Shown here: positions 7,240 to 58,794 of the stretch, piece by piece | Layout of the letters: every line of letters begins with the position of its first letter | Numbering within the stretch: the stretch's first letter is position 1 | Source: Allacma fusca | Lineage: Eukaryota; Arthropoda; Collembola; Symphypleona; Sminthuridae | Reading direction: 5' to 3' | Length of the DNA: 64,000 nt | Assembly (NCBI GenBank): GCA_947179485.1 | Contig: OX359247.1 | Coordinates: 4,865,060-4,929,059, forward strand | Made by a program: the position numbers and the translations under genes | The notes under the pieces: generated by a model | What the model saw: only the letters and a program-made list of their open reading frames with translations | Told to the model about the DNA's origin: nothing | Database searches by the model: none

Positions 7240-8482
7240 TTGTTAAACACCTTGCCAAGGGTAATCACAGAGGAGAAATATTTCTAAGTACGTTTAATCT
7301 ATCTTCCTAAAGTTAATTGTTGTTGAAAAGCAGGGCTGGTGATTGGAATCGGTATGTCTTTATTCTGAAATAAATTCAAGTATTTAAATTCATATTGAAT
7401 CAAAACAATTATCTGTATTCGAATTAATATTCAAAATATGTCTGAATGCTGCGTCTGATGCTTAGATTTCGAAAGAATTGGTCATAGATTGAGTTAACCT
7501 CATAATTTCAAAAAATAAAATTGAGCTTTTTACCCGGTGATAACATTATCTTTAAAATACTATTCGTTGGATTACAAAATTTGTCATTACGTTTGTCACT
7601 CCACAAAATGAAGAAGACCCGAGACACTCATTTTATTTCTGGAAATGTATTCGCTTCAATCTAGGCAATCAATTAGCTTCTTTTACGTGGGATAGGGATT
7701 TTCAAGGGAAAAACTTGGAGGTTACTTTTTAAATATTTAATGTAGGCATTTTGAGTACTACAGTGTCCCTAAAGAGACTGAAGGTTAACGAACAAATCAT
7801 ATGCGGATATGATACTTGTATTGATTAAACTGTAATGCCTTTACATATAAAAATGTCAGGGATAGCAGTGGGGGGTTCTTTGCAATGATAGTTGCCAAAT
7901 TCAGACACTTCCTGGCTTGTGTTTACCTACTTGTAAGGTTGGGATATATTTTATTGTCGCTATTTCGATTAAGTTTTAGTGATTGCTCAAAGTATTTGCA
8001 TTATATTGATATTCGAATAAATTGGATTCGAATAATTATTTATTTTACAAAACAAATGCGTTCCAATTGAGGTTGAAATTATCCTTTAAGATTTATCTTA
8101 ATCGGTATTGTATTCCTATGTTTCGACTACTCCAGTCCTGATGGCTTGCAAATGAAACGTGAAAACATTGCTGTCTCAACTGATACTGATAAGAAAGAAC
8201 ATGTATACCGCTTTAAATAACTTTTTTACGCTGACAACTGATTTTGAATTACAATTAAATCCTACGAAGATATATTCCAAGTGGCTATTATTTGTAACTA
8301 CGGACTGCTTCGTTGCGTATGATGTACATACAATAGTTTCATAAATACTATTCGATTATTCTTGCATTGAGATTGAGGGGCTTCTCATGGAAAAAATACT
8401 TTCCATGAGAGAAAAAGGTTTACATGAACGCATAAGGACATTATAGACTTAAGCAGTTAGTTCTTACTCTAACCTTATTATC
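7240..8482. other. 5' flank of esterase copy 1 (duplicated, non-coding)
   Basis: This sequence is shared with the flank of copy 2 (29060-29577 and 31566-32240). It includes a well-conserved AT-rich stretch at about 7500-7590. It would contain the esterase promoter, but no specific element could be identified. No independent gene was recognised. Confidence 0.5.
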
Positions 8483-9440
8483 GGAGTTCAGAGCTAATCC
8501 CGTCACGACAATCCCCCTGGTATTATTCCCGCGAGCAGTATCCCGCTGTCAGTTAGGCCGATGGATATAAGCCCGCTCACGATAATTCCGCTACTAACGA
8601 GATAATCCCGCCATGCATTGAAACACACGGAAATGGAAATAAAATGTAGTTGCTATAACAACAGTAAAGGTATTACATTTGAGCACTCAAGATCCAAAGT
8701 AATAAACTTATGCATTCATAAATTAAAGCAGATGCCAAATCCATTGGTTACAATGCTACAACAGGAGCGACAATCAACAAGTCAATGCATGCACCTATCT
8801 TCACTTTTACGGCCACTACCATTTCCTTTTGTGACGAGCAAATCTTGATCTATGCAAGCAGCAGGATGCGATAACTGCATAGTTTCTTGTTTTCTTTATT
8901 TTACCTAAAACGTAAAAATGAAGGTGGTCAATGTAAATTGGACTTCCGAAAACGGAAAAATAATCTGGCGGAGGTTGAAAATTTCCTGTTCGAAAAAAAT
9001 AATGTCATAAATCAGGGAACCTTGTACAGGTGCTTACATTACAGCGCGCGCCCCGCCAAACTACATGTAATGTTTTCCTAGCGTTGCAATTTAAATGTCA
9101 TTTTAACATTATTTCCCGAAAATTTTTGTTTGGAGTTATAATTGAGTTAAAAATGAACAGAGTTTAGTGGTATAGCTACATACACATGTCAGATTTCACA
9201 ATGTAGATACACACAATGAAAACAGGAAATCAACAGCACACAGATTGTTGTCAAGGCCATGGATAGTAATAATAAATTATATCATGGACAGTAATACAAT
9301 AAAACCTGGGTCGGGAATATCGTCAGCGGGGTTATGGTTGGCGGGATTAGATACTTCTGAGATCGGGATTAAATCCGCGGGGTTGATTCGGTGGAGTTAT
9401 CACTGTCGGAATTGTCGAGGCGGGATTAGCTCCGGACACG
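8483..9440. mobile_element. hAT-type MITE, TAATCCCG-repeat family (958 bp)
   Basis: The element is flanked by perfect 8-bp direct repeats TTATTATC (8475-8482 and 9441-9448). Its ends are imperfectly inverted (GAGCTAATCCCG left, CGGGATTAGCTC right). Each end carries several copies of a TAATCCCGC-like word, pointing inward on both sides. The paralogous empty site in the duplicated block reads CCTTATTGTCACTCAGC near 32251, which supports insertion and gives its limits. There is no coding capacity. The 8-bp duplication indicates a hAT-superfamily transposase in trans. Confidence 0.85.
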
Positions 9441-9463
9441 TTATTATCATTCAGCTCTCAGCC

Positions 9464-11169
9464 CAGAGCTGCGTTCAAGTTCAAGTATAACTTGAACTTG
9501 GTATCAAGTTCAAGTCAAGTCAAGTATAGACAATTTTGTAACTTGAAACTTAAACATCAAGTTCAAGTTCAATCAAGTTTAAGTTAATAATTTATTACTG
9601 GATTGCAAAATCAAGTCAAGTTCAAGTACACTGAATGGAAGTACTTAAGTTTTTGTCACTGAAAACCAACGTAACCAATGTAAGCAACGCCTAATTAGTG
9701 GCATCATAGCATCCTACTAAAACTAATTGTTGTAATTATTGGGAAATCATTTAGAATGATTTGTGTCAAGAATGATTTTGTCATGTTAAAAATGTTCATG
9801 TATGAATGTCATGTATAAAGAATATAGCTGAATGGACAAGAACACACTCATACAAGAGTTTCAAGAGGAGGAAACTTGCGAGGATGCAACGCATTGGACT
9901 TCGCCTACACAGCACATTGATGGTTTTAGGACGGTAATAAAACTCTCGGGACTGAAGACTGACTCAAGACTCAAGCCTATAGTTTTAAGAGCCTATAAGA
10001 TTTGTGACACAATATGACTGATCAAACTTCCTCTTGATTTTAGACTTTATTTAGATGCTATTCTCAACCGAATGTAAACTTAAAATGTATTTAAGAACCG
10101 TGACTTTCGCTGAAAAAAGACAGATCGATTATTATATTCAAGAGAAATATAGAGAATACAGAACTATTCAATATTTCGTACAGTAATATTGGGCGTCAAT
10201 CATCATAATAATGACATCTTTTCATTCCATCGACATTAAATTCGCTCCACGATACAGAGTGGTCGAGAATAATTCTTGTGTCCTGTTTACATACTTTGAA
10301 TTTTGAATAATTAAAATTTACGACTGATTGCTTTATAAAGATGTTCCTGATACTCGGGGTTCTTGTTCCATTATAAAAATGAAGTTATTGTTCACTTCCC
10401 CTGTTCTGAAGCTAAGAAGAAGTTTAAGAATAATTCATTATTTCATGTAAGAATAATTTTTGCTGATATTAAACATGATGACACAGACGAACAACCAACA
10501 ATCTTATAAATCAACATTGGTTAAGCAATATTAACGACGATAAATATTTATCTATGTATGTATGTATTTATTGTGTTTTTGAAAAGGCTCATACATAATC
10601 AAAAGTTCACAAAATTCCTTAAATTCATAGTGTAGATCATTAGATAAATATTTATGAATACATCTGCTGGTTACATTCACCAGATGAGTGCAACACTGAT
10701 GTCAACAGACGAATAATATGATTTCTACTTTAAAATTGCTAAAAAATTTAAAATACTTGATCAAATAACTAAACATTGTAGTTCAATCTAATTTACTAAC
10801 TTGAACTATTGAGAGTTTAGTCCGTTTAGTTTATCCTAATTACGACCTAGCGATTATTAGCAATAATAGTTTTACGAAATATTTGGTGGACGAAATTTTT
10901 AGTATTGTTTATTAATTTACGAAATAAATACTTGAATAATCAAGTTGAAGTAAAAGTTCAATTTCACGTTCAATTCAAATTATGTGCCCAACTTGAAGAA
11001 GTTATGATCAAGTTCAAGTTCAGTAAAATGAACTTGAAAATCGAGTACTTGAATACTCAAGTTGCTTGAGAAACTTGATTCATCAAGTACAAGTGCGGAT
11101 ACCTCGCTTAGACAATTTTTTCAAATTCAACTCAAGTTTCTACAATAAGTTGACTTGAACGCAGCTCTG
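9464..11169. mobile_element. hAT-type MITE, CAGAGCTGCGTTCAAGT termini (1706 bp)
   Basis: The terminal inverted repeats are CAGAGCTGCGTTCAAGT and its complement ACTTGAACGCAGCTCTG. The flanking 8-bp duplication is TCTCAGCC (9456-9463) and TCTCAGTC (11170-11177), 7 of 8 identical. Both subterminal regions (about 9475-9630 and 10930-11160) are dense arrays of TCAAGT/ACTTGA words. The central kilobase is AT-rich and has no transposase. The paralogous block near 32270 lacks it. Related termini occur at 23501-24802 and 49869-56826. Confidence 0.85.
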
Positions 11170-11459
11170 TCTCAGTCGATCAACAACCTTTTTCCAGAAA
11201 TTCTATAGTTATGTAAGTGTATGCAAATGAATGAGCTTTCGTTCAAATATTCAATTTCACTGAGAACTTGAAAAATTTAAAAGTCAATGAAATAATTAAC
11301 CACGGCTTCAGATTTACAATTAGCTGTGGCTTATATGGGGACTCACGTACTTATTTTAATTCGGAATTATTGTAACAAGGCTGAAACTGAAAAAAATATT
11401 TCCGCAATGCATAATGCATACATTAGGCAAATTACATCGTGTCACCACGCCTAAGCACA

Positions 11460-11595: not shown

Positions 11596-12457
11596 TAGAG
11601 CTACTTGCGGGAACGAAAAGTTTGATCCCATTCCCGAACCCGATCCCTAAAATCGGGTCATCAATATTTTCGGACTCACACCCTAACCCGTTCCCGAAAT
11701 ACTGGGATCGGGTGCACAAAAACCCAGATATTAAATATGATTGAATCATTGATCTCAAACCCGATCCCGACCCCGAAATCAGATAAAATTTGCTCTCAAT
11801 CCCGAATCCCTTGAACCCGGACTCGTTCCCGGGACCAGTGCAGTTAGTCTAAATCAATTTTTTTCATCACATTTTTATTGATTTAGCAATACTTATGCAT
11901 ACGTACCATGCAACAATGGATGTAGGCACTAGTAAAAATGGCCATTATACTAAGCGTCTGGTCTGCGTTGCCGAAAAAGCTGCAAGAAGACTGCTTAAAC
12001 GATTCCCACTATGAGTTTTGCAATGACTTTCATCTTGCAAGGTAGAGTAGGCGGAAATCACTACTATGCGATCCCAACTGACAATACACGAAACGGCTCA
12101 AGTCGCTTATGTAAAATTATTAAAATAATTAAATTTATCTCAACACTTTAACGAGGGAAGCCGTGCATACTTTGTATTTTTTCCCCGCTAGGTGGATGCG
12201 TTGTTCCCGGGAACGTGAAGCGTGTAATGGGTGTGGGAACGAAGATGTTCCCGGTTTCCGAAGGGAACACAAATACCTTCATCAAGATTGAACCCGTTCC
12301 CAAACCCGGTCCCGATCCCGAAATCCTGGGTCTGCTGAGCATGTTCCTGAACCTGGTCCCAAAGTATTTGAGAAAATTAATTAGACACCCAAACTCGAAC
12401 CCGTTCCCGATACCGAACCCAATTCCCGGGTGTATCCCGATCCCAAAAGTAGCTCTA
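11596..12457. mobile_element. hAT-type MITE, TAGAGCTACTT termini, TCCCGAACCC arrays (862 bp)
   Basis: The perfect 8-bp target duplication is GAACGAAA (11588-11595 and 12458-12465). The termini are TAGAGCTACTT and AGTAGCTCTA. Both ends carry arrays of ATCCCGAACCCG-type words in inverted orientation (about 11608-11830 and 12200-12450). The centre shows no transposase. The short open frames reading through the arrays (for example 12215-12571) are products of the repeat, not genes. Confidence 0.85.
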
Positions 12458-13259
12458 GAACGAAATCGGTCGATTAGTTTCGAAGAAAAACAGGGGGATA
12501 TACAGACCGACGGACAGCATTATTTAATAAGAAGACTGGCAACCGCCCTAAAAGCGGGAGAGATCAATTAGTTTTCACACATTTACTTATATACTCTTCC
12601 AGCACGTTATTTAAATTGTTTTTAGAAGAAATTTACTCCAGTGATTAAATAATTGTCGTAAGTTGCTGTCAACCCGCATCATCAACCTTTCACTGGGAAA
12701 CGGAAAACCGTTCGTCAAACTTGCAATTCTCCATGTTAAATGCCATTTAAAATTTCCAGTTTTGAATTTCAGGACAAATTGACTTCACGCCAATTTGGTT
12801 TTTAAAAACCCCAACGGATTTTTCAGGTGACAGATAAAGTAGTACTCAGGGTATGCGCGAACCAGTCTTGGTGGAATATGGAAAACCTGGAACGGGCACC
12901 AAAAAATGCGTACTTGTAAGAACCTTGCAAATTTTGTGTAACGGAACTCTCGATGGTAACTTGCAATCAGAGATGTGTAAAATAACTCATTTTTAATTCA
13001 AAAATACCAAATAGTTTTAATTTTTCCGTAACACAAAATACTAAATAAGATACCAGTAACTAGTTTTTCTAAAATACTTAAATAAGTAAAATACATATCA
13101 AAAACCGATCCAAAGATACTTTAGTATAAAATACTATCTTAAGTACTTTAGCATCAGGAAATACATCCAATTATTGTTTTGGAAATCGAGTACAGAACTA
13201 GTAAAAATATAAGCTTTTTGAACATTTAATCCAACAATGTAGCTTACATACACAAAAAT

Positions 13260-14889
13260 TAGTCCTGCAAATCGTTCCACAGGAGCTGATGATGGCAATG
13301 GGATATTATAGTGTAAAAACATAGATTTTATAGCTGGATATTTATCCAGAATTTGGGCGTTTTCAGAAACATCCTGTAAATAATTAAGGATTTCTGACTC
13401 AACGGTTTCATCAGATCTCTGCAATGCATTGATATTTTCAGCTTCAAATGAAAAAACTCGTCTTCTTGGCTTTGTTCAGAATGTGCATCGGAGCTGGTTT
13501 GCTTGCAAAACATTTTATCTTCGGAAATTAACACTGCTTTAGCTTCTTCTTCGTGTTCCTTTGATATCCAGCGCAATTTGAAAAATGGAAGACAAATTGC
13601 CGACAGCAGCTCAAGCGATTTATTTTTACAGTCCATTTGAAATACTTGTGGAAAACGTTTTTCTATTCTTGCTTTCGTATTGTTGCACAACGCGGCTAAT
13701 TTATTTCAAAGAGAATTATAGGCGCAAAGTACCCATAAAAAACTCTTTCTCTTATAAACCTTGTCCAAAGCCTTGCCATTAGATTCCATATACGTGCTGT
13801 TTCTGGCAGGGAAAATCTCAACAGGAAGGGATTTATTTTTACGAACAGGGATTTTGAAAATCGTTGACCTTTTTTCAGCAGGGATTTTTGAAATTGTTGA
13901 GGAACTACCAGCAGGGAAATTCAGAAATGATCTTCCAGGGAGATTTACAAAAATCCGACCCCTGCCGCTTGTAATCAGACAAAATCCAGTGGCAAGTAAC
14001 CCCTAAGACACTTAGGCGTCGAGAAGACCAAAGATCAGCAGTGCAGCACACACAAGTAGCATCCCTTAACTTCTGCTCCAAAAATTCGTTTTTTTTCAAA
14101 ATAACGACTGTCAATTTTAGAAACGAATGTTCTATACGACATTGACTTTGCTTCCGGATTCAAACCTGAAAATACATTTAAAACATTATTTTAAAATTAA
14201 AAATAACAATTTTAAACATATCAGACTAAACGATTTATTACGTTAATGAGTTTATTGAGTTCATTGGTTACCTTTTACAAGTCGTTTAAATGAAGATTCC
14301 TCAACATGATACAAAGGCGTCATTGATTCGATTATATAGTCAATAATCAGATTCTCGTGCTTGTAAGTTTTAGGAAAGAATCCAGTCAGAGGTTGTTGTC
14401 AAGGAAGTTTAGTCCGTTCCCGCTCCCTTGAATTCAGTGTATATTTATACTCGTCATGATTTTCGGGTGGAGTCTAAATCACAAAAAGTAAATAGGATTA
14501 AAATTGCTGTGACTTTAATCACATAATTTTTAAACAAACTGACATTAACATTGTTGGTAGTTATTCTACAAAGCTAGTTGGTACAAGCGCGTGAATAAAA
14601 TTTTAATTAGTTAAAATGTATTAAATTAATTTAGCTTAATTTAATTTCAAAAACTAATTCAATAAGATCTCAAGATAAAGATTGCTTGCTTACTAAGTGC
14701 TTTAAAAAATTTGACGTTGATGACAAAGCTCCTTTTATTATCCTTACTAGACCTCGCCGTTTTGGTTCCTACTCCGAGATTCTTTTCACAAATATTGCGC
14801 TGGGCGACCACACTTCCATTGTCTTGCTCAATTACCAGAAAATAGCTGCCGTCCAGAGTTGTGGGTAAAGGTCGCATCGAGGATGACAT
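13260..14889 (-). pseudogene. hAT transposase pseudogene (zf-BED / hAT dimerisation type)
   Basis: A hAT transposase excises and inserts DNA through an RNase-H-like core and dimerises through a C-terminal domain. Visible pieces from N to C are residues after SYFLVIEQDNGSVVAQ (BED-like), the VCCTADLWSSRR phrase (core), SAICLPFFKLRW (insertion domain) and the ILNYLQD...LPSSAPVERFAG segment (dimerisation). No single frame spans them; a MITE insertion, frameshifts and a deletion intervene, so no active enzyme can be made. The family assignment rests on TADLWSS and SSAPVER, both standard hAT hallmarks. Confidence 0.75.
13808..13964. mobile_element. Fragment of CAGGG-family MITE inside the hAT copy
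   Basis: The fragment starts with CAGGGAAAATC, ends in ATCCGACCCCTG, and holds several CAGGGA(T/A)TT words. It matches the complete short element at 35332-35526 and further fragments at about 60462-60705 and 62399-62467. No matching 8-bp duplication is visible, so the site has been rearranged. Confidence 0.55.
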
Positions 14890-15474
14890 TTTGAAATGCC
14901 TGAACTACCGATTTCTTATAATGTATAATTAAAGCATGATAACGAGAAGGACCGTGCTCTCTGATGCTACTTTGCAGTGAACAGTCTGAGTGAATTTATC
15001 TCGTTTAATATTTCCCGTACGTACAACGTCTGTTAATCGCTAAAAAACGTTTTAGCTATACTTAATGTTAACGGTAAGAAATAGTTTCACAATAAGAACG
15101 ATTGTGGCAATTTCAAAATATTGAGTACTTAAGTATTTTGACAAAGTATTTTATTTTAAATACTTATAATTACTATTAATGGTTACAAATAAGATAGTAC
15201 ATTCTTACCACCATCGTATGTTTTAAATACTAAGATACAAAATACCCGGTCGACCCCAGTAGGTTTGAAATACAAGGTACGTATTATGCATTGCAGATAG
15301 TATTTTGTATTCAAGTATTTCAAGTACTACACATCTCTGCTTGCAATGCATTAAATTAAATTCATGACTTTATTAGTGTTATTCCGAAGTAGCACAAAGG
15401 TATGATTGTTCTTTCACCATTAACGAATGAAGCCCTAATTTATTCGTGTTATTAAACAAATTTATTCGATTGAG

Positions 15475-15627
15475 TACTCGGACCGGGTACAGAAACCGTG
15501 CACCCGTACCCGAATTTTGGGCACGACGAAATGCTGCACCCATAACAATAAATTTTTCAGTTCCCGCACCCATGCTTCAATAATCCGTATTCGTAATGTA
15601 CCCAAAACCTGTACCCGTAGCCGAGTA
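15475..15627. mobile_element. Small MITE-like inverted repeat with TACTCGG ends
   Basis: The ends TACTCGGACCGGGTAC and GTACCCGTAGCCGAGTA are imperfect inverted repeats. The interior repeats a GTACCCG-like word. No convincing target duplication was found, so this is less certain than the other elements. Confidence 0.4.
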
Positions 15628-17005: not shown

Positions 17006-17610
17006 TAGAGCTTCCAATGTGTTCAACATTTGTGTTCCGTAGAAAATTCCGTTCCGTTCCGAAACCTACAAATAATATTGTTCCCGGTTCCGTTCCGACT
17101 GTCGGGACATCGGAATATTTTAAATGAAATCGTTCGGAACAAAGAAGTAAATTTTTGTTTCCGTCACAGTTTGTGTTCCGTTCCGGATTATGCTGGTTTT
17201 TCTTTCCGAACCCGTTCCGTTCCGAAGCATCCCGGGATTTTTTATTACATGTACATGAAATGCAATTTGCACTACCTGTAATATTTCCACAACAATATTT
17301 ATGTTCAAGTTTGATATTTGATTATAAATAATTCCTTTCTGTATTTTAAAATAGTAAGGACACTTCATTAACTGTACCGGTATCGGAACGGAACGGAACA
17401 GAACAATTCCGCTTTCCGATGACATAAATTTTATGTGACAGTTTTCGTACCGATGCTGTGAACTGTCCCGGTCCCAATATCATCGGTACAAGTGCTCATG
17501 TTCCGGTTTTGTCCCGATTCAATGACGGAACAAAAAGAATGTTCCGAAATTGTTCCGTTCCGTTTCCGAACACGGAACTTCGGGATTTCGGAAACCCGAA
17601 GGAAGCTCTA
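17006..17610. mobile_element. hAT-type MITE, TAGAGCTTCC termini, GTTCCG arrays (605 bp)
   Basis: The perfect 8-bp duplication is GTTGACGG (16998-17005 and 17611-17618). The termini are TAGAGCTTCC and GGAAGCTCTA. The ends are packed with GTTCCG/CGGAAC words in both orientations (17034-17235, 17380-17600). There is no transposase, and open frames across it come from the hexamer arrays. The terminus matches the element at 11596 apart from the last bases, which suggests related transposases. Confidence 0.85.
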
Positions 17611-17618
17611 GTTGACGG

Positions 17619-18116
17619 TATATATATTCGAACCTTTGATATTCCAAAATGCAGAATAAACCCCCATCTAGAGTTTCTTGAACATATGTTTTTTTATTTT
17701 TATTAACTTGCTGCAGTGCAAACGATTTCAATTTTATTGAACGATTTTATTGTCCATGACACCAGTAAGTGTGGATCTCCTCCAAAATGACGTGTTGTCG
17801 TGCAAAGTGAAAAGTTGATTCAACAGAATCATTTATTGTCTAAAATTATCCGTACACAAAAATCTTCGAAATAAGAGAGCATCTTAAAGAATATTACTTT
17901 GTCGTTCAATTCCGACAAAGATACATATCGGTTGTAGGTATAGGGACAAATCTCGGGAGTGATGTATGCAAGTTATAGGTAGGTCAAATTTCAGGAGTGA
18001 TCTATGAATGTTGGCTAAACTGTAGGCTCCACGAAAGAATCTAAAAATATGTAGAATAAAATTTAAGGAATGCAAATATTTTGCCCAGCTTAGGCTAACA
18101 ATAAGATTAACATTAA
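17619..18116. other. Non-coding region, nothing recognised
   Basis: The region is AT-rich. No gene, TIR or RNA signature was seen. Confidence 0.35.
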
Positions 18117-18120
18117 ATCA

Positions 18121-18339
18121 GTGGGCGAAATACCTGAAAGTCAAGTGCGGGTTCAGGTTCGGGTCGGGTTTACATCGGATCCAAACGTCAGGTAATTTTT
18201 CAGGTACGGATATACTAGAAATGCCCGACGAAAAATATTTGCTCGGATTCGACTGAGCAAGTTCGGGTCGAAGAAAATGTCAGGTGCGGATCGGGTTCAC
18301 GTGCGGATCCAGATTTTTTGGTACCTGAGAGCAGCTCTG
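18121..18339. mobile_element. Truncated MITE related to the CAGAGCTGC family
   Basis: The right end GAGAGCAGCTCTG and the interior words (CAGGTTCGGGTCGGG, TCAGGTAC) match the family at 49869-56826. The left end lacks the expected terminus and no target duplication is seen, so this is a truncated or rearranged copy. Confidence 0.5.
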
Positions 18340-20137: not shown

Positions 20138-20820
20138 CAAAGCTGGGCAAAACGATGGCGTATCCTAAATACTACATACATTTTATAGTTTACGAAGAGC
20201 ATACATTTTGTATACATAAATTTGTCCAGAAATGCAATCATTCATATATGCATACATAAATTTGTCCCGAAATGTAATCATTCATATATGCATACATAAA
20301 TTTGTCCCGAAATGTAATCATACATATATTCATCCTATAAATAAATTTATGCATAAATATATTTAACGTTACGTAAGTATTTTACGTTCAATAAGTATGA
20401 ACGTTCTGAACCTTTATAAAAACTAATGAAGCATGGCTTCGCGCGTGTATATTGTTAATTAGTTAAGTTTAAAATTATTAATTTCTAGTTTCGTAGGTTT
20501 CAGTCACAACGTATAGAAATCGTTTGCATTGCAGCAGGAAATAATAATGCGAATACACCAATAAACACAGACCGTGCCAAGAAAATACAGATGGAGCTCG
20601 CTGAACATATACGGTGCATACATAATACATACCTAAATCTCCCCGGCCTTTTAAACATACATGCTCGTAAATACAGTATTCATACCATACATATATCATA
20701 CATTTTTTAGTGGAAACACGCAGCCTACATAAAATACATACAAATATTCGGAAAATGTGCGAACATACATAAAAAACTGCGTATATTTATGCATAAATGT
20801 AGGATATGTGCCCAGCTTTG
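20138..20820. mobile_element. hAT-type MITE, CAAAGCTGGGC termini with 40-bp tandem repeat (683 bp)
   Basis: The perfect 8-bp duplication is CCACACTC (20130-20137 and 20821-20828). The termini are CAAAGCTGGGC and GCCCAGCTTTG. The interior is rich in ATACATAA/TTATGTAT words. Three 40-bp tandem units (starting 20221, 20261 and 20301, each beginning TTTGTCC) lie in the left half. There is no transposase. Confidence 0.85.
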
Positions 20821-38744: not shown

Positions 38745-39459
38745 TAGAGCATCTCGGGCGGTTAAAATTTGCGGGTAAGCCCGTAAAAAGCCCGGCCCGC
38801 CCGGGCTTTGGCGGGTACGGGTAAAATTTATTACGCTTGACGGGTTACGGGTGGGTACGGTCTTTTCAATGCGGTTAAAAAAGACCGCGAAAGCCCTGAA
38901 AAGCCCGGGAAAAAATTCATGAGTGGTGCATGCAGGACCAGGGGTTGTAAAAGTACAATGACTTGAATACATGGAACGATTTTTAAACATTTGTAATTTT
39001 ACCTTTAATACAAATTCTTAACATTCAATGTCAACAAATTCAATTACAGGAAATAACCGGAAAACCGCATATTTGGAAAACATTTAAACAAACTGGTTGA
39101 CTAGGTTTCCATAAATTATGTGAAGTGCAATGAGTGCAGAAATATTTTAGTACGCAATCGCGCCAAAGAGGGACATCAACTCTGGCCAAACATAATTGTA
39201 AGAATTCTGCAGTGGAAGCAACCCAATTGCATTAAAAAAAGTCGAAAATGCAAAATTGAATAAGCAAATTTTTCTGGGTCTATAGCTATGGATTTACAAG
39301 TTGAACTAATATTAGCGGGCGGGCTACGGGCTTTTTTAATTTTTACGGAACGTGCCGGGCTTTATCGTCGAACTTTAATTTCGGGCCGGGCGGGCAAGGG
39401 TAACATTTACGGGCCGCGGGCGGGCACGGGCCTAAAATATCCCACGGGGTGATGCTTTA
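38745..39459. mobile_element. hAT-type MITE, TAGAGCATC termini, GGGCGGG arrays (715 bp)
   Basis: The ends are TAGAGCATC and GATGCTTTA, with flanks ATACCTAA (38737-38744) and GTACCTAA (39460-39467), 7 of 8 identical. The subterminal arrays consist of GCCCGGCCCGCCCGGGC and GGGCGGGCTACGGG-like words, a strong GC island in AT-rich DNA. The centre is AT-rich and non-coding. Confidence 0.7.
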
Positions 39460-49860: not shown

Positions 49861-50387
49861 GTAGTTACCAGAGCTGCTTTCAGGTATCAAAAAATCAAGA
49901 TCCGCACCTGAACCCGACCCGCACCTGAAATATCAGGTCAATATTTTTCGTCAACCCGAACTTGACCCTCAGGATACGATTTAATATCCGCACCCGTCAG
50001 GTATTTTTGGATCCGGTATTGCTTGGCTACCTATACATGAAAAAATACCTGAGGTGCGAATCTCAAAACAAACCCGACCCGAACTTGAACCCGAACTCGA
50101 CTTTCACGTATTTTGTCAGAACAAACTTATTATCACAAGTTCTAACCTAATACTTTATCAAAGTAAATATCACTTACAACTGACGCTAAATCACAAATGC
50201 GCAAATTTGTATTAATTTTAAGTGACAATCGTCACAAAAAGAATGAAAACAACCAGTGTAAGCTTCTCCAAGCATTCTCTGAGCGATAGCTTCAGCATGC
50301 GACCGCAGATAATCATCAAACTTTTCAAATTGTAACGAATCCTTAAGGTACAAGTATACATGAAATAGATTTCATTTTGATGATGTC

Positions 50388-50757
50388 TGTTGAATTCCTA
50401 ATTGATTAAAATTGGTTCAATCTCAAATATTCAAAACGCGTATAATTTTTAAGGGTAGTGTGGAGGTAAAGGCTATGCTTTCAGGGAATAATTGACTTGA
50501 AGAACCCAATAAGAAATCCAAGAATTATTATAAAAGTCACATAGAAAATAAGATGTTTAATACATAGAAGCTCAATATCATCACTGAATCTACATTTCCC
50601 TTTTCATTCCACTGTAACATTTTAAGAACATGAAAAATGATACTTTTTCATAACAGTCGTAGAGTAGTAAATGTGTTACTAACAATTAGTCTAGATTTAA
50701 GTTTTGAAACAATAACACTTCTTAAATTATTTGCATGACAACAATTGGTACTCAACA
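50388..50757 (-). repeat. 3' LTR of the BEL/Pao element
   Basis: A 370-bp direct repeat, identical by eye to 55997-56366, with TGTTG...CAACA ends. The polypurine tract lies just inside the element. Confidence 0.92.
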
Positions 50758-50786
50758 TTCCGGCCCCCATTGAAATACAATTTCAA

Positions 50787-53700
50787 TTACTGGTTTGTAG
50801 ACGGATCAATAGGTAATGGACATAATTTCACAAATGGCCTCTTGAATATTCCATCTGCAGTTTTGACAGTATAGACTCTTGTCAGACCATCAGTTCCAGT
50901 ATGAGCTTCAATTATTCTGGCTAACTTCCATGTCATTGGTGGGTATCGTTCATCCTTTAGCAAAGTTAAATCCCCAGTTTGCAAAGTCGGCCGTTGAGAT
51001 AACCATTTTGGTCTCTGTTGAAGCTTGCACAAGTATTCCGTACTCCATCTCTTCCAGAACTGTTGTACCGCCCTCTGCATTAATTTCCACTTTGACAGAT
51101 GAGACAACGGTTCTATAGTTACATTTTGCTCGGGTAGCGCTGTAAGTGCATCTCCTATCAGAAAATGGCCTGGAGTTAAACAGGTTAAATCATTTGGATC
51201 TGAACTCATAGATGTCAAAGGTCTGGAATTCAGACACGCTTCGATTTGTGCAATTACAGTTGACATATCTTCGTAAGTTAGAATACAAGTTCCCAATGAT
51301 CGTTGAAGATGGTACTTTACCGACTTTATTCCTGCCTCCCAAATTCCACCAAAATGAGGACTACAAGGTGGATTAAAATGCCATACTATTCCTCTGCCAG
51401 CTAAGTAGGAACCAATGATGTCATTGAATTCCGAAGATTTACACAGTTTTAACAATTCTCTATTTGTTCCAACAAACGTCCGACCGTTGTCACTAAAGAT
51501 GTCGCTTGGTACTCTTCGTCTTGCAATAAATCTTTTTAACGTGGCAATAAATGCTTGAGATGACAGACTGGTGACAATTTCCAGATGAATAGCACGAGTC
51601 ACCATACATACGAATAACGCAATATAACCTTTATAATTGCGGTTGCTTCGTCCTTTAGTGACCCGCAGAGTATAAGGTCCGGAGAAATCTACTCCTGTTT
51701 TGAGGAAAACTGGATTGGGATTTACTCTTACATTCGGTAAATCAGCCATCATTTGATTATTTGATTCTGCTTTGAATCGACTGCAAATTACACATCGCTT
51801 GATCTCACGTCTCACAGCATCTCGACCATTGATGATCCAAAACTCTCTCTGAATGCCATTTAAGACTAATTGTACACCACCGTGCAAATTGTTGAGATGC
51901 TCATTGTTGATAATCAGTGATGTAAGAAACTGGTTTTTGGGGAGAATAATTGGAAATCGTCTTCCTATCGGCAATTTGGCATGGCGAAGTCTTCCACCAA
52001 CTCTCAAAATTCCATTTTCGTCAATGAATGGATTTAAACTGCGTAGATTTGATCTTACATCGACGTACTTTTTCTCGATGCAACTCAGTATTTCCGATGC
52101 AAAATGATTTTTCTGAACTAATTTGATCCAAAGTATCAGAGCTCTCCGTAATTCAGAAACTGATAGGAACGAAGTATCCTTGTTCTTCCTACCAGCTCGA
52201 CAATTTGCAATAAATCTGAGACAATAAGCGGTAACTCGTTTCAATCTAGACAGAGAGGAAAATTTATACAAAAGTGACAGATCATATATCACGTGATGAA
52301 TATTGGCCACTTTTTTCTCTTCCGTCAATGCTCCCCCATCACTGATTGTAACCTTCTCAAATACATGGTCTGTATCAATAAGCCATCTTGGTCCACTCCA
52401 CCATAATGGATGTGAAACTAATTCAGCTGGTTTAATTCCCCTTGATGCACAATCTGCAGGATTTTCCAATCCTGAAACGTGATGCCAGTGGTCATAAGGA
52501 ACAATTTCCTGAATCGCCGAAACCCGATTTGCTACATATGTCTGCCATCGTTTCGGATGACTTCCCAACCAAGACAATACAATAGTCGAATCCGTGAATG
52601 CGTGAATCGCATCTGGTTTTACTAGAAATGAATCCGAAATAGTGTCCATTAACCGGACCAGCATTAATGCACCATTCAATTCCAATCTTGGCAGTGAAAC
52701 TTGCTTTAAGGGAGCAACTTTTGTTTTTGCCGCCACCAAGCTAACATGATAGGTACCATTATCTAGTTTACATCGTAAATAAACTGCTGCGCCAATAGCC
52801 GATTCCGATGCATCGCTAAACCCAAACAATTCATAGGAACAACCGTGTTGTGGTTTAATACATCTGTCAATTTTTATTTCCTCGAGTTCTGATAGTGATG
52901 CCAGATAGTTTGACCATTTTTCCAAAATGGAGTCAGGAACAACTTCATCCCAATCTAACTTCTGACACCACAATTGCTGCAGTAATATTTTCGTAACAAT
53001 TGTCACGGGTCCTAAAAATCCTAGTGGATCAAATATTTTTGCCATATCTGATGATATAGTTCTCTTTGTCACAATCTTACGGGAAATCGGTATTGAGACC
53101 TTGTAGCAAAATTGATCCGATGCAGGTGACCAATAAAGTCCCAAAGTCTTGATGATGTCATCTTCATCTAAACGCAAAGGTAATTGTGTCTCTCGCATTT
53201 TCGGATCCAGGGAACTCAATATGTCTTCATAATTGGAGGACCATTTGCGAAGTTCCATATGTGCAGAATCCATCAGTCTCAATATTTGATTCTGCAATAC
53301 CAGCGCTGCATTGATTTCGAAATGTCCGGATATCAAATCATCCATATAAAAATCCCGCGCCAAGACTTCGCTGCCTAATGGAAATTCTGTGCTACCATCT
53401 TCCGCTAGTTGTTGTAAGCATCGTTTTGACAAATATGGAGCCGTTGATGTTCCATACGTGACTGTTGTTAAACGATAATCCTGAATTGGTTTGTCTGTGG
53501 TCTCTCTCCAAACTATCCTTTGGAAATCTTTATGCTTGTCTGCGATCCAGATTTGTCTAAACATTTTACATATATCAGCCGTGAATGCAATAATGTACAT
53601 ACGAAATCGAATAAGAATGACGAAAAGGTCATCCTGCAATTTTGGGCCAGTAAGTAAAACGTCATTGAGGGATAATCCCGATGTGGTTTTTGCCGATGCA

Positions 53701-55925
53701 TCGAATACCACCCTCAATTTGGTAGTTGTACTTGAATCCTTAATAATGGCATGATGAGGTAAATAATACGTCTCATTGGCAGGTTTCTGCAAATCTTCAC
53801 TGGGTACTAATTCCATATGACCAAGAGCTTCATACTCCTTCATAAATGCAACATACTGTTGTTTTCGTTCCGGTTTTGCTTGAAGAGACCTTTCCATTTG
53901 TTTCAATCTTCGAACTGCAATTTCTCTAGATGCCCCTAAATTGGAAGTACTTTCTCTGAATGGTAATTCCACGACAAATCGGCCTTCAATATTACGAGTT
54001 CTTGTTGATACGAAATGCTTCTCACAAATTTTATCTTCTTGCGTCATGATAGATTTAGATGGAACTTCTTCCAATAGCCAAAATCGTTCAATAATTTCTT
54101 CCAATTTCGATTCACATCGGACATGATTAGCTGATACGGATGCAAAATTTTGTGAAGGACACACTCCTCCAACTATCCAACCGAACGATGTCTGTAGCGC
54201 CACCGGACGATCATTGCCGACATTAATAAGACCAGATTGCATTGTGTGAAAAAACACATCGGAAGCAAGTAATAAATCGATTTTGCCAGGTACATTGAAA
54301 TATGGATCTGCTAAGCTTAAGCTTTGAATATGTGAAATTTCACTTGCTTTACAAGGAATTCTTGGCAATATTCCGGTGACTTTCTTCAATACATAAGCAT
54401 CCACATCTATGTTTGAATCTCCATCAAACTTTGAGCCAATCAGTAAATGAACGAGTCCAGACGAAGTACCAATCGCATTTGCGCCCAATCCTGCAAGATT
54501 GACTTCGGTCTGCATCCTCTTGATTCCCAATTGTTGTACACACTTCTCACTTATGAAGCTGACATCTGCACCAGGATCTATTAATGCGCGAAACAATTGA
54601 CGTTGACCGAATATATCCTGTACTGCAACTAATGCTGTAGCTAGAAGAGCTCTTTTCGCATCGCCTTCATGATTCGAAGTATGGGCAGATACTGTACCGA
54701 TGGTTGGAATTGATGGAGAGTTTTCTTGTACAAGATGAAGTAACGTGTGATGTCTTCCCTGACATTCTCTACATGTATTCTTCGATGTGCATTTTCTCGA
54801 CAAATGACCAATTTTGAGACAATTGAAACATAAAGATAACTGCTTTACCTTTTCTCTTCGATCAGTAATGTTCATGTCTGCAAACTTCTTGCAAGAATAA
54901 ATTGCGTGATTACCATTCTGACATATAACGCACGAAACATCTGCATTGGTCTGGTGAGCACTTGCCGATTTTTTTGTATTCATACTTGTAGTGACACCTG
55001 GTTTAACTTGATTCGCAATCTTGATTTTTCCAAACTCGGATGAGCTCAAAATAATTGCTCGATCATCTAAAAATTCTAATAATTCAGTCAAATTCGGCAA
55101 TTTGTCACGTCCAAGTTTTGTCTCCCACAATTTGTGTGTTTCGGAGTCTATTCGATTGATGATTATATGCATGGCTAAATCGCAGTCGTCATTAATTGGT
55201 CGATGTAATGCTTTCAATGCTCTCACAACAGATGTCGCTGTATCCACCACCAGCCTGAGCTCGTTACCAGACTCTTGTTTCATTGATGGAATATCCATAA
55301 ACCTGTTCAAATGAGTCTTTATGAGCTCTCGAGTGTTGTGATATCGTTTCTTTAATGTGTCCCAAGCTTCAACATAATTGGCATCAGAAATTTGGAATGA
55401 TGCTATTGCTTCTGCTGCCTTTCCTTTGACACTGTGTTTCAAATATTGAAGCTTCTGAGCCCCTTGCAGGGTTGAATTGTTATGCACACTGGCAGTAAAT
55501 AAATCCGAGAAAACTGTCCATTCCAGAATATCTCCCGAAAAAGTTGGAATATCTAGCTTTGGAAGTTTCGCTGTAGTTTCATTTCTGATTGGTTCCCTCG
55601 ATTGCCTTCGTTGATTCACATATTCGGGTCCCCTTAGACGCCTTATTATATGCTTTACTGCAATCTGAACTTCATCAAAACGGTCGGCTATCTCATCATA
55701 CTGTGTTTGATGAATATCCTCTTGTTCTTGTGGACATTCTGCTAGAATATCGTCGTAAAGCGTGTTGAATTCTGTCCATAATTCCGTCAGCTTGTCATCA
55801 TAAATATTAGCAGTATCAATATCCCAGTCTTGAGCTGTTTCATGATCCACCTTATTCTTCATCCTCGACAACTTTCCTTTCAATAATTTTCGTTTGCCAA
55901 TCAAAGCGTCCATGTTTTCAATCAA
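50787..55925 (-). CDS. BEL/Pao gag-pol polyprotein, intact (1712 aa)
   Basis: The frame is open from ATG 55925 to TAG/TAA at 50787. Approximate domains: Gag-like (DUF1759) 110-290 with LPKLDIPTFSGDILEW; zinc knuckles at about 335 (CVICQNGNHAIYSC) and 365-390 (CFNCLKIGHLSRKC); aspartic protease (DUF1758 type) at about 445 with IDPGADVSFIS; reverse transcriptase about 715-890 with FYMDDL at about 858; RNase H-like region from about 1030 (FGFSDASES) including LPRLELNGA; integrase zinc-binding (HLNNLHGG...CVICSRF) about 1345-1390; integrase core with Asp at about 1412, Asp at about 1478 (FSDNGRTF) and Glu at about 1528 (GGIWEAG); DUF5641-like C-terminus. The protease active site reads D-P-G instead of D-S/T-G. 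No stop or frameshift was seen, so the element may still be active. Confidence 0.93.
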   Translation of the reverse strand: MIENMDALIGKRKLLKGKLSRMKNKVDHETAQDWDIDTANIYDDKLTELWTEFNTLYDDILAECPQEQEDIHQTQYDEIADRFDEVQIAVKHIIRRLRGPEYVNQRRQSREPIRNETTAKLPKLDIPTFSGDILEWTVFSDLFTASVHNNSTLQGAQKLQYLKHSVKGKAAEAIASFQISDANYVEAWDTLKKRYHNTRELIKTHLNRFMDIPSMKQESGNELRLVVDTATSVVRALKALHRPINDDCDLAMHIIINRIDSETHKLWETKLGRDKLPNLTELLEFLDDRAIILSSSEFGKIKIANQVKPGVTTSMNTKKSASAHQTNADVSCVICQNGNHAIYSCKKFADMNITDRREKVKQLSLCFNCLKIGHLSRKCTSKNTCRECQGRHHTLLHLVQENSPSIPTIGTVSAHTSNHEGDAKRALLATALVAVQDIFGQRQLFRALIDPGADVSFISEKCVQQLGIKRMQTEVNLAGLGANAIGTSSGLVHLLIGSKFDGDSNIDVDAYVLKKVTGILPRIPCKASEISHIQSLSLADPYFNVPGKIDLLLASDVFFHTMQSGLINVGNDRPVALQTSFGWIVGGVCPSQNFASVSANHVRCESKLEEIIERFWLLEEVPSKSIMTQEDKICEKHFVSTRTRNIEGRFVVELPFRESTSNLGASREIAVRRLKQMERSLQAKPERKQQYVAFMKEYEALGHMELVPSEDLQKPANETYYLPHHAIIKDSSTTTKLRVVFDASAKTTSGLSLNDVLLTGPKLQDDLFVILIRFRMYIIAFTADICKMFRQIWIADKHKDFQRIVWRETTDKPIQDYRLTTVTYGTSTAPYLSKRCLQQLAEDGSTEFPLGSEVLARDFYMDDLISGHFEINAALVLQNQILRLMDSAHMELRKWSSNYEDILSSLDPKMRETQLPLRLDEDDIIKTLGLYWSPASDQFCYKVSIPISRKIVTKRTISSDMAKIFDPLGFLGPVTIVTKILLQQLWCQKLDWDEVVPDSILEKWSNYLASLSELEEIKIDRCIKPQHGCSYELFGFSDASESAIGAAVYLRCKLDNGTYHVSLVAAKTKVAPLKQVSLPRLELNGALMLVRLMDTISDSFLVKPDAIHAFTDSTIVLSWLGSHPKRWQTYVANRVSAIQEIVPYDHWHHVSGLENPADCASRGIKPAELVSHPLWWSGPRWLIDTDHVFEKVTISDGGALTEEKKVANIHHVIYDLSLLYKFSSLSRLKRVTAYCLRFIANCRAGRKNKDTSFLSVSELRRALILWIKLVQKNHFASEILSCIEKKYVDVRSNLRSLNPFIDENGILRVGGRLRHAKLPIGRRFPIILPKNQFLTSLIINNEHLNNLHGGVQLVLNGIQREFWIINGRDAVRREIKRCVICSRFKAESNNQMMADLPNVRVNPNPVFLKTGVDFSGPYTLRVTKGRSNRNYKGYIALFVCMVTRAIHLEIVTSLSSQAFIATLKRFIARRRVPSDIFSDNGRTFVGTNRELLKLCKSSEFNDIIGSYLAGRGIVWHFNPPCSPHFGGIWEAGIKSVKYHLQRSLGTCILTYEDMSTVIAQIEACLNSRPLTSMSSDPNDLTCLTPGHFLIGDALTALPEQNVTIEPLSHLSKWKLMQRAVQQFWKRWSTEYLCKLQQRPKWLSQRPTLQTGDLTLLKDERYPPMTWKLARIIEAHTGTDGLTRVYTVKTADGIFKRPFVKLCPLPIDPSTNQ

Positions 55926-55996
55926 ATTAGAAACTTCTCAACTAATATATCGGATGATTCAAATGTTATTTAAATCCGGTTCGAAGGACCAAAGAA

Positions 55997-56366
55997 TGTT
56001 GAATTCCTAATTGATTAAAATTGGTTCAATCTCAAATATTCAAAACGCGTATAATTTTTAAGGGTAGTGTGGAGGTAAAGGCTATGCTTTCAGGGAATAA
56101 TTGACTTGAAGAACCCAATAAGAAATCCAAGAATTATTATAAAAGTCACATAGAAAATAAGATGTTTAATACATAGAAGCTCAATATCATCACTGAATCT
56201 ACATTTCCCTTTTCATTCCACTGTAACATTTTAAGAACATGAAAAATGATACTTTTTCATAACAGTCGTAGAGTAGTAAATGTGTTACTAACAATTAGTC
56301 TAGATTTAAGTTTTGAAACAATAACACTTCTTAAATTATTTGCATGACAACAATTGGTACTCAACA
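55997..56366 (-). repeat. 5' LTR of the BEL/Pao element
   Basis: This is the partner of 50388-50757, identical by eye. It should hold the element's promoter; no specific motif was identified. The primer binding site follows at about 55993-55974 on the minus strand. Confidence 0.92.
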
Positions 56367-56884
56367 ATGTCTGATACAACGTTAAGGCTATATCGTGAAA
56401 TTAATTTGCAAAAGGGTATTTGTCACCTTAATAATTAATTGGTATGGCAGCTCTCATGCATCACTAACTACCACGTGTCCTTTAGGCATGTGAAGCTACG
56501 ATTATGTTCAATTCCGCTTGAGAGTTGCATTCTCGTGAACTTAATGTTAAATTATTGCGGTAAAAAAATACTTGCTACATACCTGAAATTGCAAGTTCGG
56601 GTTCAGGTATTTTGAATTTTTCGAACCGAACTTGTACTTGACATTGAGCTCAGATATATTTTTTAAATCCGAACTTGATCGTAACCCGACCTGTGCTTTC
56701 AGGTGCGGATCCTTGATCTAACCGCACTTGACCCGAATCTCAGGTAATTTTTTTGTAGCGACCCGAACGTGACCCGAACCCGACGGGTATTTTTCAGGTA
56801 CTACCTGATACCTGCTAGCAGCTCTGGTAGTTACCCAAGTGTACCTGAGTTTCGTGTTTCACTAGGAGCACTTGACCGGCTGAG

Positions 56885-57411
56885 CAGGGTTGGTTTGGTT
56901 TAAACCAAATGATTTAAACCATGGTTTAAACCATGGTTTAAACCAAACGGTTTTTTTATAAAAACCAATGGTTTAAACCAAACACCTAAAATTTTAATAT
57001 TTTCAATCCAAAACGCTTATATTTCGTCGTGCGCAAAACTTGTGCAGTTACTGTGATATTGTGTAATTAAACTTTAGTGAAGTAAATAATACTATTAGCT
57101 TTTAGTCTTGTACATTTAGAAATTCGGAATCGTTTGTAAAATGAAAAATGCCAAACTTGTGTTTATGCTGCAAAGTTATCATTAAAATTATATCCAAATT
57201 ATTAAATATTTAATGCTTTGTGATACTTACTGAGTTTGGGAAATAAGTAAATTTGTTCAAATTCACATGTTTTTTCATATGAATGAATGTTTTGCATTGA
57301 AAATTTGTTTAAACCAAAAAAACCTGGTTTAAACCAAAAAAACCCGGTTTAAACCAAAAAAACCTGGTTGTTTGGTTTTTTTGAAATAAACCAAAAAAAC
57401 CCCCAACCCTG
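56885..57411. mobile_element. hAT-type MITE, CAGGGTTGG termini, GGTTTAAACC arrays (527 bp)
   Basis: The perfect 8-bp duplication is CGGCTGAG (56877-56884 and 57412-57419). The ends are CAGGGTTGGTTTGG and CCCCCAACCCTG. The left part has palindromic GGTTTAAACC words; the right part has a 20-bp tandem unit (CTGGTTTAAACCAAAAAAAC type) about three and a half times at 57307-57375. It is non-coding. Confidence 0.85.
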
Positions 57412-57694: not shown

Positions 57695-57927
57695 AATATA
57701 TGCAGGCGCGTAGCCAAGGGGGGGGGCAAGGGGGGCAATTGCCCCCCCCCCATTCGAAATAAAATACTCTCAAATCACTCAAAAAGTTAAAAATAAATCA
57801 GTCCATACCGAGACATGCAAACCTTTTTAGTGATTTGACAATACAATTTTTTTTATTTGTAAAAAAAATCACTTCGAAACTCAACATATGCAGTATTCCA
57901 TGTAAATATCTGTGTATAAACAGCATA

Positions 57928-58201
57928 ACTCTAGAATCACCCATGAAATTTGCATGTTTCGTGTGAATGATTTATTACCCACGGCTCCTCCCGTCATTAA
58001 TTGACCCATCCATACGCGCGAAAATCGTATCGCAATGTTTGTCCATTGCGAGAGCAAAGGATTTCTAGATCAATAAATTTCTATCGAAATGAAAAAGCAT
58101 TTCGATACGATTTTCGCGAGTATGGATGGGTCAACTTTTGACGGGAAGAAGCCGTGGGTAATAAACCATTCAATAAAGAGACGTTTTGGGTGATTCTAGT
58201 G
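57928..58201. mobile_element. Nested long-TIR MITE flanked by TA (Tc1/mariner-type?)
   Basis: The ends are ACTCTAGAATCACCCA and TGGGTGATTCTAGTG, flanked by TA on each side. The inverted similarity continues deep inside: TTATTACCCACGGCT and CCCATCCATACGCGCGAAAA on the left have complements on the right. The arms thus cover about 100 bp each with interruptions. The TA flank suggests a Tc1/mariner-mobilised element. It is nested in the hAT element 57703-58786. Confidence 0.6.
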
Positions 58202-58450
58202 TATATTTTTATTGTGTTCATCCTTGTTTAGCGGGTGATTTGAATGCATTGCGAAATCCCGATTTCACTTTGACCTTTGCCTCGTCGATTTGACTTCAAC
58301 CTTCAACGGCAACAAAAGTATGGTAACAGCGGCTTTAAATATTTTCATATTAAAAGCTTTTAGCTTCTGTAACTTACACGCATCGCTTCGAGGGAATTTT
58401 TAAGCTCGATAGAATTATTAAATTAGTGAATTGTATTTAATTCTTCATTA

Positions 58451-58522
58451 TGAAAAGATCAAGCACGCCTGATATCCGCAGTTTCTTTTCGAAGCAAAGA
58501 CGTGTGTCACAGGAACAGTAGG
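58451..58522 (+). pseudogene. Remnant N-terminus of a ZMYM1-like hAT transposase
   Basis: The frame reads MKRSSTPDIRSFFSKQRRVSQEQ and then a stop. The pattern of a basic start followed by I-x-S-F-F-x-K is the usual beginning of transposases of this hAT group (IxSFF motif). The remaining domains are deleted. The evidence is short but fits the element's ends. Confidence 0.5.
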
Positions 58523-58794
58523 TTAAGCACCAGCTGAAACGATAGAAGCGAACCGAGGTCTCGAAATTCCCCGAAATCTGATCAAGCCCAATTAAAAATC
58601 TGGTCCAAAATTATTCAAATTTGATGGAATCGTAAAACGTGGAGAATTTTAAAATCTGAAATTCAGTTTGCAAAATTTGATGCGTTTTACATTCGTGAAT
58701 TGGATTTCCCATAGAATGTGTCAGTTTACATATGTACGTTCTAATTAATGTTGCCCCCCCTTGGTCAATTCCTGGCTACGCGCCTGAATATATG

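What the first reader, a model, noticed from the sequence alone, without database searches (positions are those of the whole stretch)
8475..58794. At least fourteen hAT-type insertions delimited to the base, most with word-array interiors
Fourteen elements with inverted ends and 8-bp duplications can be read by eye (10 perfect, 3 at 7/8, and one interrupted by an LTR element). The unusual point is the interior: each MITE family is filled with its own 6-10-nt word in both orientations (TAATCCCG, TCAAGT, TCCCGAACC, GTTCCG, GTCCCG/GGGGACA, GGTCTGGTC, GGGCGGG, GGTTTAAACC, CAGGGAT). hAT transposases are known to use short subterminal binding motifs. Here the motifs make up most of the element, which could reflect selection for transposase-binding density, with word identity diverging between families.
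Basis: partly seen in the sequence, partly recalled or inferred. Interest (0 to 1): 0.72.

Follow-up and report, generated by a model that had tools for sequence, protein, structure and literature searches.

The report
hAT transposons with private binding-word arrays
A stretch of animal DNA holds about fifteen hAT-type jumping-gene insertions, most of whose ends carry repeated copies of a short family-specific word, probably the landing sites of their transposases; this is a known feature of hAT elements, and the new part is that sister families seem to have swapped the word at the same places.

Summary
All fourteen insertions are recovered (11 duplications 8/8, 3 at 7/8) and a fifteenth is added (60461-62467). 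Paralogous sequence at 32148-32427 has the empty sites of two. In 13 of 14 the commonest 8-mer beats all 300 background segments. Words do not fill the elements; they form arrays in the outer 200-300 bp around an ordinary middle. Left and right arrays of an element share words in 14 of 14 cases. Words are better conserved than their surroundings in 10 of 11 directed comparisons of related ends. Two pairs of related families differ by the same one-letter word change at several homologous sites. Best reading: transposase (BED-finger) binding sites. Subterminal repeats are called a defining feature of hAT elements (PMC4890040), so these are new members of a known kind; the parallel word change is the interesting residue. 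Copies and autonomous partners genome-wide could not be checked: the genome search did not complete. E1 may not be a hAT, E14 has no word, and transposase remains are seen only by eye, in E4, without a Pfam match.

The parts
8483..9440 (.). E1: TSD TTATTATC 8/8, word CGGGATTA (5 copies); tips GGAGTT.../CGTGTC... are not hAT-like, superfamily open
   Evidence: empty site TTATTGTC in paralogous sequence
9464..11169 (.). E2: TSD TCTCAGCC/TCTCAGTC 7/8, TIR CAGAGCTGCGTTCAAG, word ACTTGA (28 copies)
   Evidence: empty site TCTCAGCC in paralogous sequence
11596..12457 (.). E3: TSD GAACGAAA, TIR TAGAGCTACTT, words CGGGAACG and CCCGATCC (5 each)
12968..15339 (-). E4: TSD CTTGCAAT, TIR CAGAGATGTGTA, words AAATACT/AGTATTT; decayed hAT-like transposase by eye on the minus strand
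   Evidence: Pfam negative; right end resembles the Tgf2 left end (7/500 shuffles reach the score), left end does not (105/500)
13254..13400 (-). fragment with a hAT dimerisation-type signature YPAIKSMFLHYNIPLPSSAPVER (recognised from memory)
   Evidence: no Pfam match to a transposase family
13806..13964 (.). E10-family copy (CAGGGA words) inside E4; right tip at 13964, left tip not delimited
17006..17610 (.). E5: TSD GTTGACGG, TIR TAGAGCTTCC, word GTTCCG (19)
18110..18339 (.). F18k: fragment of an E12-like end (ACCTGA words, tip at 18339)
20138..20820 (.). E6: TSD CCACACTC, TIR CAAAGCTGGGCA, word ATACAT (13; partly in 40-bp tandem units)
21415..22342 (.). E7: TSD ACCACCTG, TIR CAGAGCTTCTG (right tip AAGAGCTTCTG), words GTCCCG (28) and GGGGACA (18), partly tandem (40 and 82 bp units)
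23501..24802 (.). E8: TSD ATGTACAC, TIR CAGAGCTGCG, words ACTTGA (23) and CCCGAAC (7)
24038..24458 (.). E9: nested in E8; TSD GTTGCTAG/GTTTCTAG 7/8, word GGTCTGG (10)
35332..35526 (.). E10: TSD GTTGTACC, word CAGGGA (5)
38745..39459 (.). E11: TSD ATACCTAA/GTACCTAA 7/8, TIR TAGAGCATC/TAAAGCATC, word GCCCG (18)
49869..56826 (.). E12: TSD GTAGTTAC, TIR CAGAGCTGCT, words ACCTGA (12) and CCCGAAC (6), ACTTGA (5); split by an LTR element
50388..56366 (-). Pao-type LTR retrotransposon inside E12: identical 370-bp LTRs, TSD ATGTC, 1716-codon open frame
   Evidence: Peptidase_A17, DUF1759, DUF5641, Integrase_H2C2
56885..57411 (.). E13: TSD CGGCTGAG, TIR CAGGGTTGG, word GGTTTAAACC (6)
57703..58786 (.). 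E14: TSD AATATATG, TIR CAGGCGCGTAGCC; no significant word array, mainly G/C runs
60461..62467 (.). E15 (outside the reported range): TSD GTTTATTG 8/8, imperfect tips, E10 family (CAGGGA), with a reverse-transcriptase frame inside
32148..32427 (+). paralogous sequence without E1 and E2: single target sites TTATTGTC and TCTCAGCC

Best explanation
These are mostly non-autonomous hAT transposons. Their short tips are cut by a hAT transposase, and the outer 200-300 bp at each end hold about 2 to 15 copies of a short main word that the N-terminal BED zinc finger of that family's transposase binds. Many sites let a multimeric transposase load on both ends and bring them together. Each family has its own word because its transposase has its own finger specificity; related families with nearly the same tip have changed the word in step at homologous positions. 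Shown here: insertions, arrays, the same words at both ends, excess conservation of words, parallel word changes. Inferred: binding by the transposase and co-divergence with it.
For: Insertion: TSD/TIR scan and empty paralogous sites of E1 and E2. Arrays: 13 of 14 at k=8, subterminal gradient, 2-15 copies of the main word per end. Same words at both ends: with the outer 20 bp dropped, left-end 6-mer content matches best the right end of the same element in 14 of 14 rows and 14 of 14 columns (0 of 20000 permutations), while best local alignments between the two ends in the mirrored orientation span 6-75 bp, mostly at unequal distances from the tips. Conservation: word positions exceed their surroundings beyond realigned neutral simulations in 10 of 11 directed comparisons over 6 pairs of related ends (15/300 or fewer); by Fisher test P is below 0.05 in 11 of 14 directed comparisons over 7 pairs. 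Parallel change: 3 of the 4 ACCTGA words in the first 96 bp of the E12 left end stand as ACTTGA in E8, at positions 38, 55 and 65 (457/200000 in simulation); 3 of 3 GTTCC words of an aligned 44-bp stretch of E5 stand as GTCCC in E7 (193/200000). Print: BED domains bind left-end subterminal repeats of Hermes (PMC10368747, passages), Herves transposase binds (CGATTCAT)4 (PMC3143072, passages), Ac transposase binds AAACGG (PMC3260210, passages), Tgf2 has 17 and 18 copies (PMC4890040, passages).
Against: No intact transposase of any word family was found; E4 has remains recognisable only by eye, with no Pfam match to a transposase. E14 has no word array and E1 has tips unlike hAT. The first main word lies at the same distance from both tips in only 3 of 13 elements (E1 15/15, E2 12/12, E9 14/14); in others not (E4 69/20, E5 29/33, E6 39/51, E13 13/57). 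In Hermes the phasing of left-end repeats is strict and no right-end repeat was seen bound (PMC10368747), unlike the loose arrays here. E12 words against E8 show no excess conservation (56/300; Fisher 0.39 and 0.10), and the fourth E12 word of the stretch did not follow the switch. Words were chosen after seeing the arrays, and the aligned pairs were found by similarity search. Both word changes are C/T transitions, so mutation bias is not excluded. In maize some Ds1 elements move without exact hexamers, and tested Ds-l elements with hexamers did not (PMC3260210).
Confidence: 0.8

Rival explanations
1. The arrays are by-products of replication slippage and local duplication inside the elements, without selection on the word.
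For: Tandem Repeats Finder reports arrays that include the words in E6, E7, E9 and E13 (4 of 14); E7 has 40-bp and 82-bp units.
Against: In the other 10 of 14 elements no tandem array of the word was reported at score 50; words are irregularly spaced, often in both orientations; the same words stand at both ends across an ordinary middle; words are conserved beyond their surroundings.
Confidence: 0.1
2. The words bind a host factor (transcription, chromatin or DNA-bending protein), not the transposase.
For: Host nuclear proteins that bind Ac subterminal regions are known by title (Becker and Kunze 1996, seen in a reference list).
Against: A single host factor would give one word; here nearly every family has its own. 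In E1, E2, E9 and E12 (4 of 13) the first copy lies within 20 bp of both tips.
Confidence: 0.06
3. The parallel word changes come from context-dependent C-to-T mutation, not from a change of binding specificity.
For: Both changes, ACCTGA/ACTTGA and GTCCC/GTTCC, are C/T transitions.
Against: The context differs between the two pairs, the change follows the word in both orientations, and array-wide counts shift with it (ACTTGA/ACCTGA 23/1 in E8, 5/12 in E12), though not completely in E12.
Confidence: 0.2

Closest known systems
Ac/Ds of maize (hAT, Ac family)
   Same: 11-bp TIR, 8-bp TSD, several short words in the outer 200 bp bound by the transposase (PMC3260210, passages)
   Different: Plant; one word (AAACGG); here nearly every family in one window has a different word
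Tol2/Tgf2 of fish
   Same: 11-bp TIR, 17 and 18 subterminal repeats, left end CAGAGGTGTAA followed by AAGTACTT-like words (PMC4890040, passages); of 7 ends compared, the E4 right end aligns best beyond chance (7/500), the E2 left end next (27/500)
   Different: The E4 left end (105/500), E8 right (94/500) and the E5, E7 and E13 left ends do not exceed chance
Herves and Hermes of flies
   Same: Subterminal motifs bound by the transposase or its BED finger (PMC3143072, PMC10368747, passages)
   Different: Motifs differ (CGATTCAT; AAGT); Hermes left-end sites are strictly phased
Kat1, a domesticated yeast hAT transposase
   Same: A hexamer (AATTCA/TGAATT) repeated six times between the ends, proposed to stimulate cleavage (PMC4763223, passages)
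   Different: Domesticated; not a MITE
Buster1 MITEs of invertebrates and bats
   Same: Subterminal tandem words (TGGGTCGCG) (PMC4298943, passage)
   Different: Buster target site nnnTAnnn (PMC3517528, passages) is not enriched here (6 of 28)
hAT-19 / CGGBP DNA-binding proteins
   Same: BED plus Hermes domains of related hATs bind diverse 8-mers, often with CGG, matching their own subterminal regions (PMC8097297, parts 1 and 2 of 3); CGG/CCG is 23.5 per kb inside the elements against 12.1 outside
   Different: No such protein found in the window

Membership tests
hAT superfamily | 8-bp target site duplication | tested here: met
   11 of 14 at 8/8, 3 of 14 at 7/8; E15 8/8
hAT superfamily | short TIR (5-27 bp, PMC3517528) with a tip of the YARNG type (tip pattern recalled) | tested here: met
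   12 of 14 by eye on the listing (one of the two E7 tips starts with A); not met by E1 (GGAGT/CGTGT) and E14 (CAGGC)
hAT superfamily | subterminal repeats | tested here: met
   13 of 14 at k=8; not E14; E1 and E11 only at k=8 or weakly
hAT superfamily | transposase with BED finger, catalytic and dimerisation domains | tested here: inconclusive
   remains by eye in E4 only; no Pfam match to a transposase
hAT, Ac-type target choice | TSD nTnnnnAn (recalled) | tested here: inconclusive
   T2/A7 15 of 28, expected 9.0, P 0.015; in the right direction but weak
hAT, Buster-type target choice | TSD nnnTAnnn (PMC3517528) | tested here: not met
   T4/A5 6 of 28
MITE families | short, non-coding, many copies, ends shared with an autonomous element | tested here: inconclusive
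   short, and no gene recognised in them except remains in E4; copy number and partners need the genome, and the genome search did not complete in 17 tries
hAT-19 / CGGBP | CGGBP-type N-terminal domain in the mobilising transposase | not testable with these tools
   no transposase for the CGG-word families was found in the window

The most novel reading that the evidence does not exclude
New hAT families arise by a concerted change of the subterminal word in place: sites at both ends switch by the same letter while the tip is kept, in step with a change in the BED finger, so that the subterminal arrays of many families in one genome form a written record of BED-finger specificity from which a recognition code could be read.
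Probability: 0.4. Interest if true: 0.65.

Novelty: new member of a known kind. Interest (0 to 1): 0.42.

Why it matters
Each family gives a pair of tip and word, readable from DNA alone. If the words are BED-finger sites, a genome rich in such families would give many transposase-word pairs, hence a direct way to test how BED fingers choose DNA and how a transposon keeps tens of sites matched to a changing protein. It also explains odd word-rich stretches of an animal genome as ordinary hAT ends.

Tried and rejected
Rejected: that words fill the elements. That all arrays are microsatellites. That E14 has a word. That left and right arrays are simple inverted copies of each other: only short mirrored alignments were found, though no null was made for these scores. 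Confirming E4 as a hAT by Pfam or by a sequence search of the PDB: no relevant match. Two viral-contig pattern scans: CAGAGCTGCKTTCRRGT gave 4 loci, all with GC 0.49-0.60 around the match and one ACTTGA or ACCTGA each in 300 bp, taken as chance; GGTTTAAACCAAAAAAACC gave none. A paper search for tip sequences (156 papers, 25 listed) listed nothing that I could tie to transposons. Three searches on word divergence or co-evolution in hAT ends (13 of 13 listed, 12 of 17, 12 of 499) listed no paper whose title or start of abstract describes it; the library is limited and only passages of a few papers were read. Word-rich stretches at 15470-15660 and 25700-25860 could not be delimited.
Full report
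What the window is. About 36% GC DNA that reads as animal, probably arthropod (my judgement from its genes and elements; the organism was not identified). It has a carboxylesterase-like stretch (Pfam match below the family's cut-off) within a segment duplicated at 87% identity (4062-7700 and 25857-29568), a reverse-transcriptase frame near 61-62 kb, and many transposon insertions.

Checking the elements. A scan for 8-bp duplications next to inverted ends (80-7000 bp apart) was run on the window and on 12 dinucleotide shuffles. With 8/8 TSD and TIR of at least 10/12 there are 9 hits against 1.25 on average; with TIR 12/12, 3 against none in the 12 shuffles. Eight of the nine are elements of the finding and one is an artefact of the E13 array. 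E1, E9, E10, E11 and E13 are not distinguishable from chance by that scan alone. Independent proof exists for 2 of 14: sequence at 32148-32427, paralogous to the flanks (about 70-74% identical), carries neither E1 nor E2 and has one copy of each target (TTATTGTC and TCTCAGCC); no empty site was found in the window for the others. E12 is split by a Pao-type LTR element with identical 370-bp LTRs and its own duplication ATGTC. A fifteenth insertion, E15, lies at 60461-62467 with TSD GTTTATTG and imperfect tips.

Checking the words. For k=8 the commonest word exceeds all of 300 same-length segments from outside the elements in 13 of 14 elements; E14 fails (56/300). With k=6, E1, E11 and E14 do not stand out, and E3 (5/300) and E10 (10/300) are marginal. 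Pooled coverage by 8-mers present at least three times is 0.46 within 50 bp of an end, 0.43, 0.36 and 0.33 in the next three 50-bp bins, 0.26 at 200-300 bp and 0.12 beyond. So these are subterminal arrays with an ordinary middle; only E7 is more than half words. Coverage beats all 200 background segments in 11 of 14 (not E1, E4, E11). Words are largely private to families. CGG/CCG stands at 23.5 per kb inside the elements and 12.1 outside; this is driven by the words and is a lead only.

Four tests of function. First, the left and right arrays of one element share their words: after dropping the outer 20 bp, the best match of each left end is its own right end in 14 of 14 rows and columns, 0 of 20000 permutations reaching the summed diagonal; for E1 and E14 the similarity is small (0.14 and 0.11). 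Best mirrored alignments of the two ends span 6-75 bp, mostly at unequal distances from the tips, so a plain inverted duplication does not explain it; these scores had no null. Second, I looked at where the first main word lies. It is at the same distance from both tips in only 3 of 13 elements (E1 15/15, E2 12/12, E9 14/14) and within 20 bp of both tips in 4 of 13 (also E12, 12/19); in E4, E5, E6, E13 and others it is not. In Tgf2 an 11-bp TIR is followed at once by the repeats (PMC4890040, passages). This test is mixed. Third, in alignments of related ends the words are more conserved than the rest: Fisher P below 0.05 in 11 of 14 directed comparisons over 7 pairs. Against neutral simulations that were realigned in the same way, 10 of 11 directed comparisons over 6 pairs reach 15/300 or fewer; E12 words against E8 do not (56/300). 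Fourth, related families show the same change at several homologous sites. E12 and E8 left ends have words at the same positions 38, 55 and 65 in the same orientations, ACCTGA in one and ACTTGA in the other; the fourth E12 word of that stretch, at 12, does not follow. E5 and E7 show GTTCC/GTCCC at 3 of 3 sites of an aligned 44-bp stretch. Simulations with the same number of mismatches give this in 457 and 193 of 200000 trials. Array-wide counts agree: ACTTGA/ACCTGA/CCCGAAC are 28/0/0 in E2, 23/1/7 in E8, 5/12/6 in E12 and 1/6/2 in the fragment at 18.1-18.3 kb. The third and fourth tests were made after the words and pairs had been seen.

How it most likely works. In hAT elements the catalytic core holds the tip and the BED finger binds repeats further in. 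In Hermes three left-end repeats are bound by BED domains, with strict phasing, while no right-end repeat was seen bound (PMC10368747, passages); Herves transposase binds a synthetic tetramer of its motif (PMC3143072, passages); Ac hexamers are thought to give specificity (PMC3260210, passages). The arrays here fit such a role in number, place and presence at both ends; their spacing is looser than in the Hermes left end. That the word follows the finger is inference; related BED domains do bind diverse 8-mers that match their own subterminal regions (PMC8097297, parts 1 and 2 of 3).

Where the autonomous elements are. Only E4 (2372 bp) shows transposase remains, on the minus strand: YPAIKSMFLHYNIPLPSSAPVER, CCTADLWSS and SSTSNFLKHL in separate broken frames. 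I recognise these from memory as hAT-like; Pfam gave no transposase match and a PDB sequence search gave nothing relevant. E4 itself has word-rich ends, and its right end resembles the Tgf2 left end (7/500 shuffles reach the score; left end 105/500). So in one family the word array and a likely transposase relic share an element. For the other families this is untested, because the search of the window's own genome did not complete in 17 tries.

Limits. One genome window, mostly one copy per family; words and pairs chosen after inspection; 8-bp duplications also occur in other superfamilies (recalled), and E1 in particular has tips unlike hAT. The verdict is a real, ordinary hAT architecture in many families, with an uncommon view of how the words change.

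After a check against the calls I corrected the first-word statement (same distance in 3 of 13, not in most), moved E9 to the elements that the scan alone does not prove, and turned the Ac-type target test to inconclusive.

Noticed in passing
60461-62467: A fifteenth insertion of the E10 (CAGGGA) family with perfect TSD GTTTATTG and a reverse-transcriptase frame inside.
   Followed up: partly
40940-45694: Element with 12-bp TIR CCCACGTAGCAC and a possible AT duplication; long minus-strand frames with a weak DUF4218 match (E 0.016, below cut-off), perhaps CACTA-like.
   Followed up: partly
50388-56366: Pao-type LTR retrotransposon with identical LTRs and a 1716-codon open frame, hence probably a recent insertion.
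   Followed up: partly
15470-15660 and 25700-25860: Word-rich stretches (GGGTAC; CGATTC/CAGTCC) outside the 14 elements; the second ends where the homology of the two duplicated segments begins (25857). Neither could be delimited.
   Followed up: partly
4062-7700 and 25857-29568: Duplicated segment with a carboxylesterase-like frame, 87% identical; sequence at 31566-32548 matches its flank and lacks E1 and E2.
   Followed up: partly
34980-35162 and 58613-58797: Inverted similarity (83%) between the end of E14 and a stretch at 35 kb, probably a truncated E14-family copy.
   Followed up: no
29673-30026: Tandem repeat with 152-bp units.
   Followed up: no
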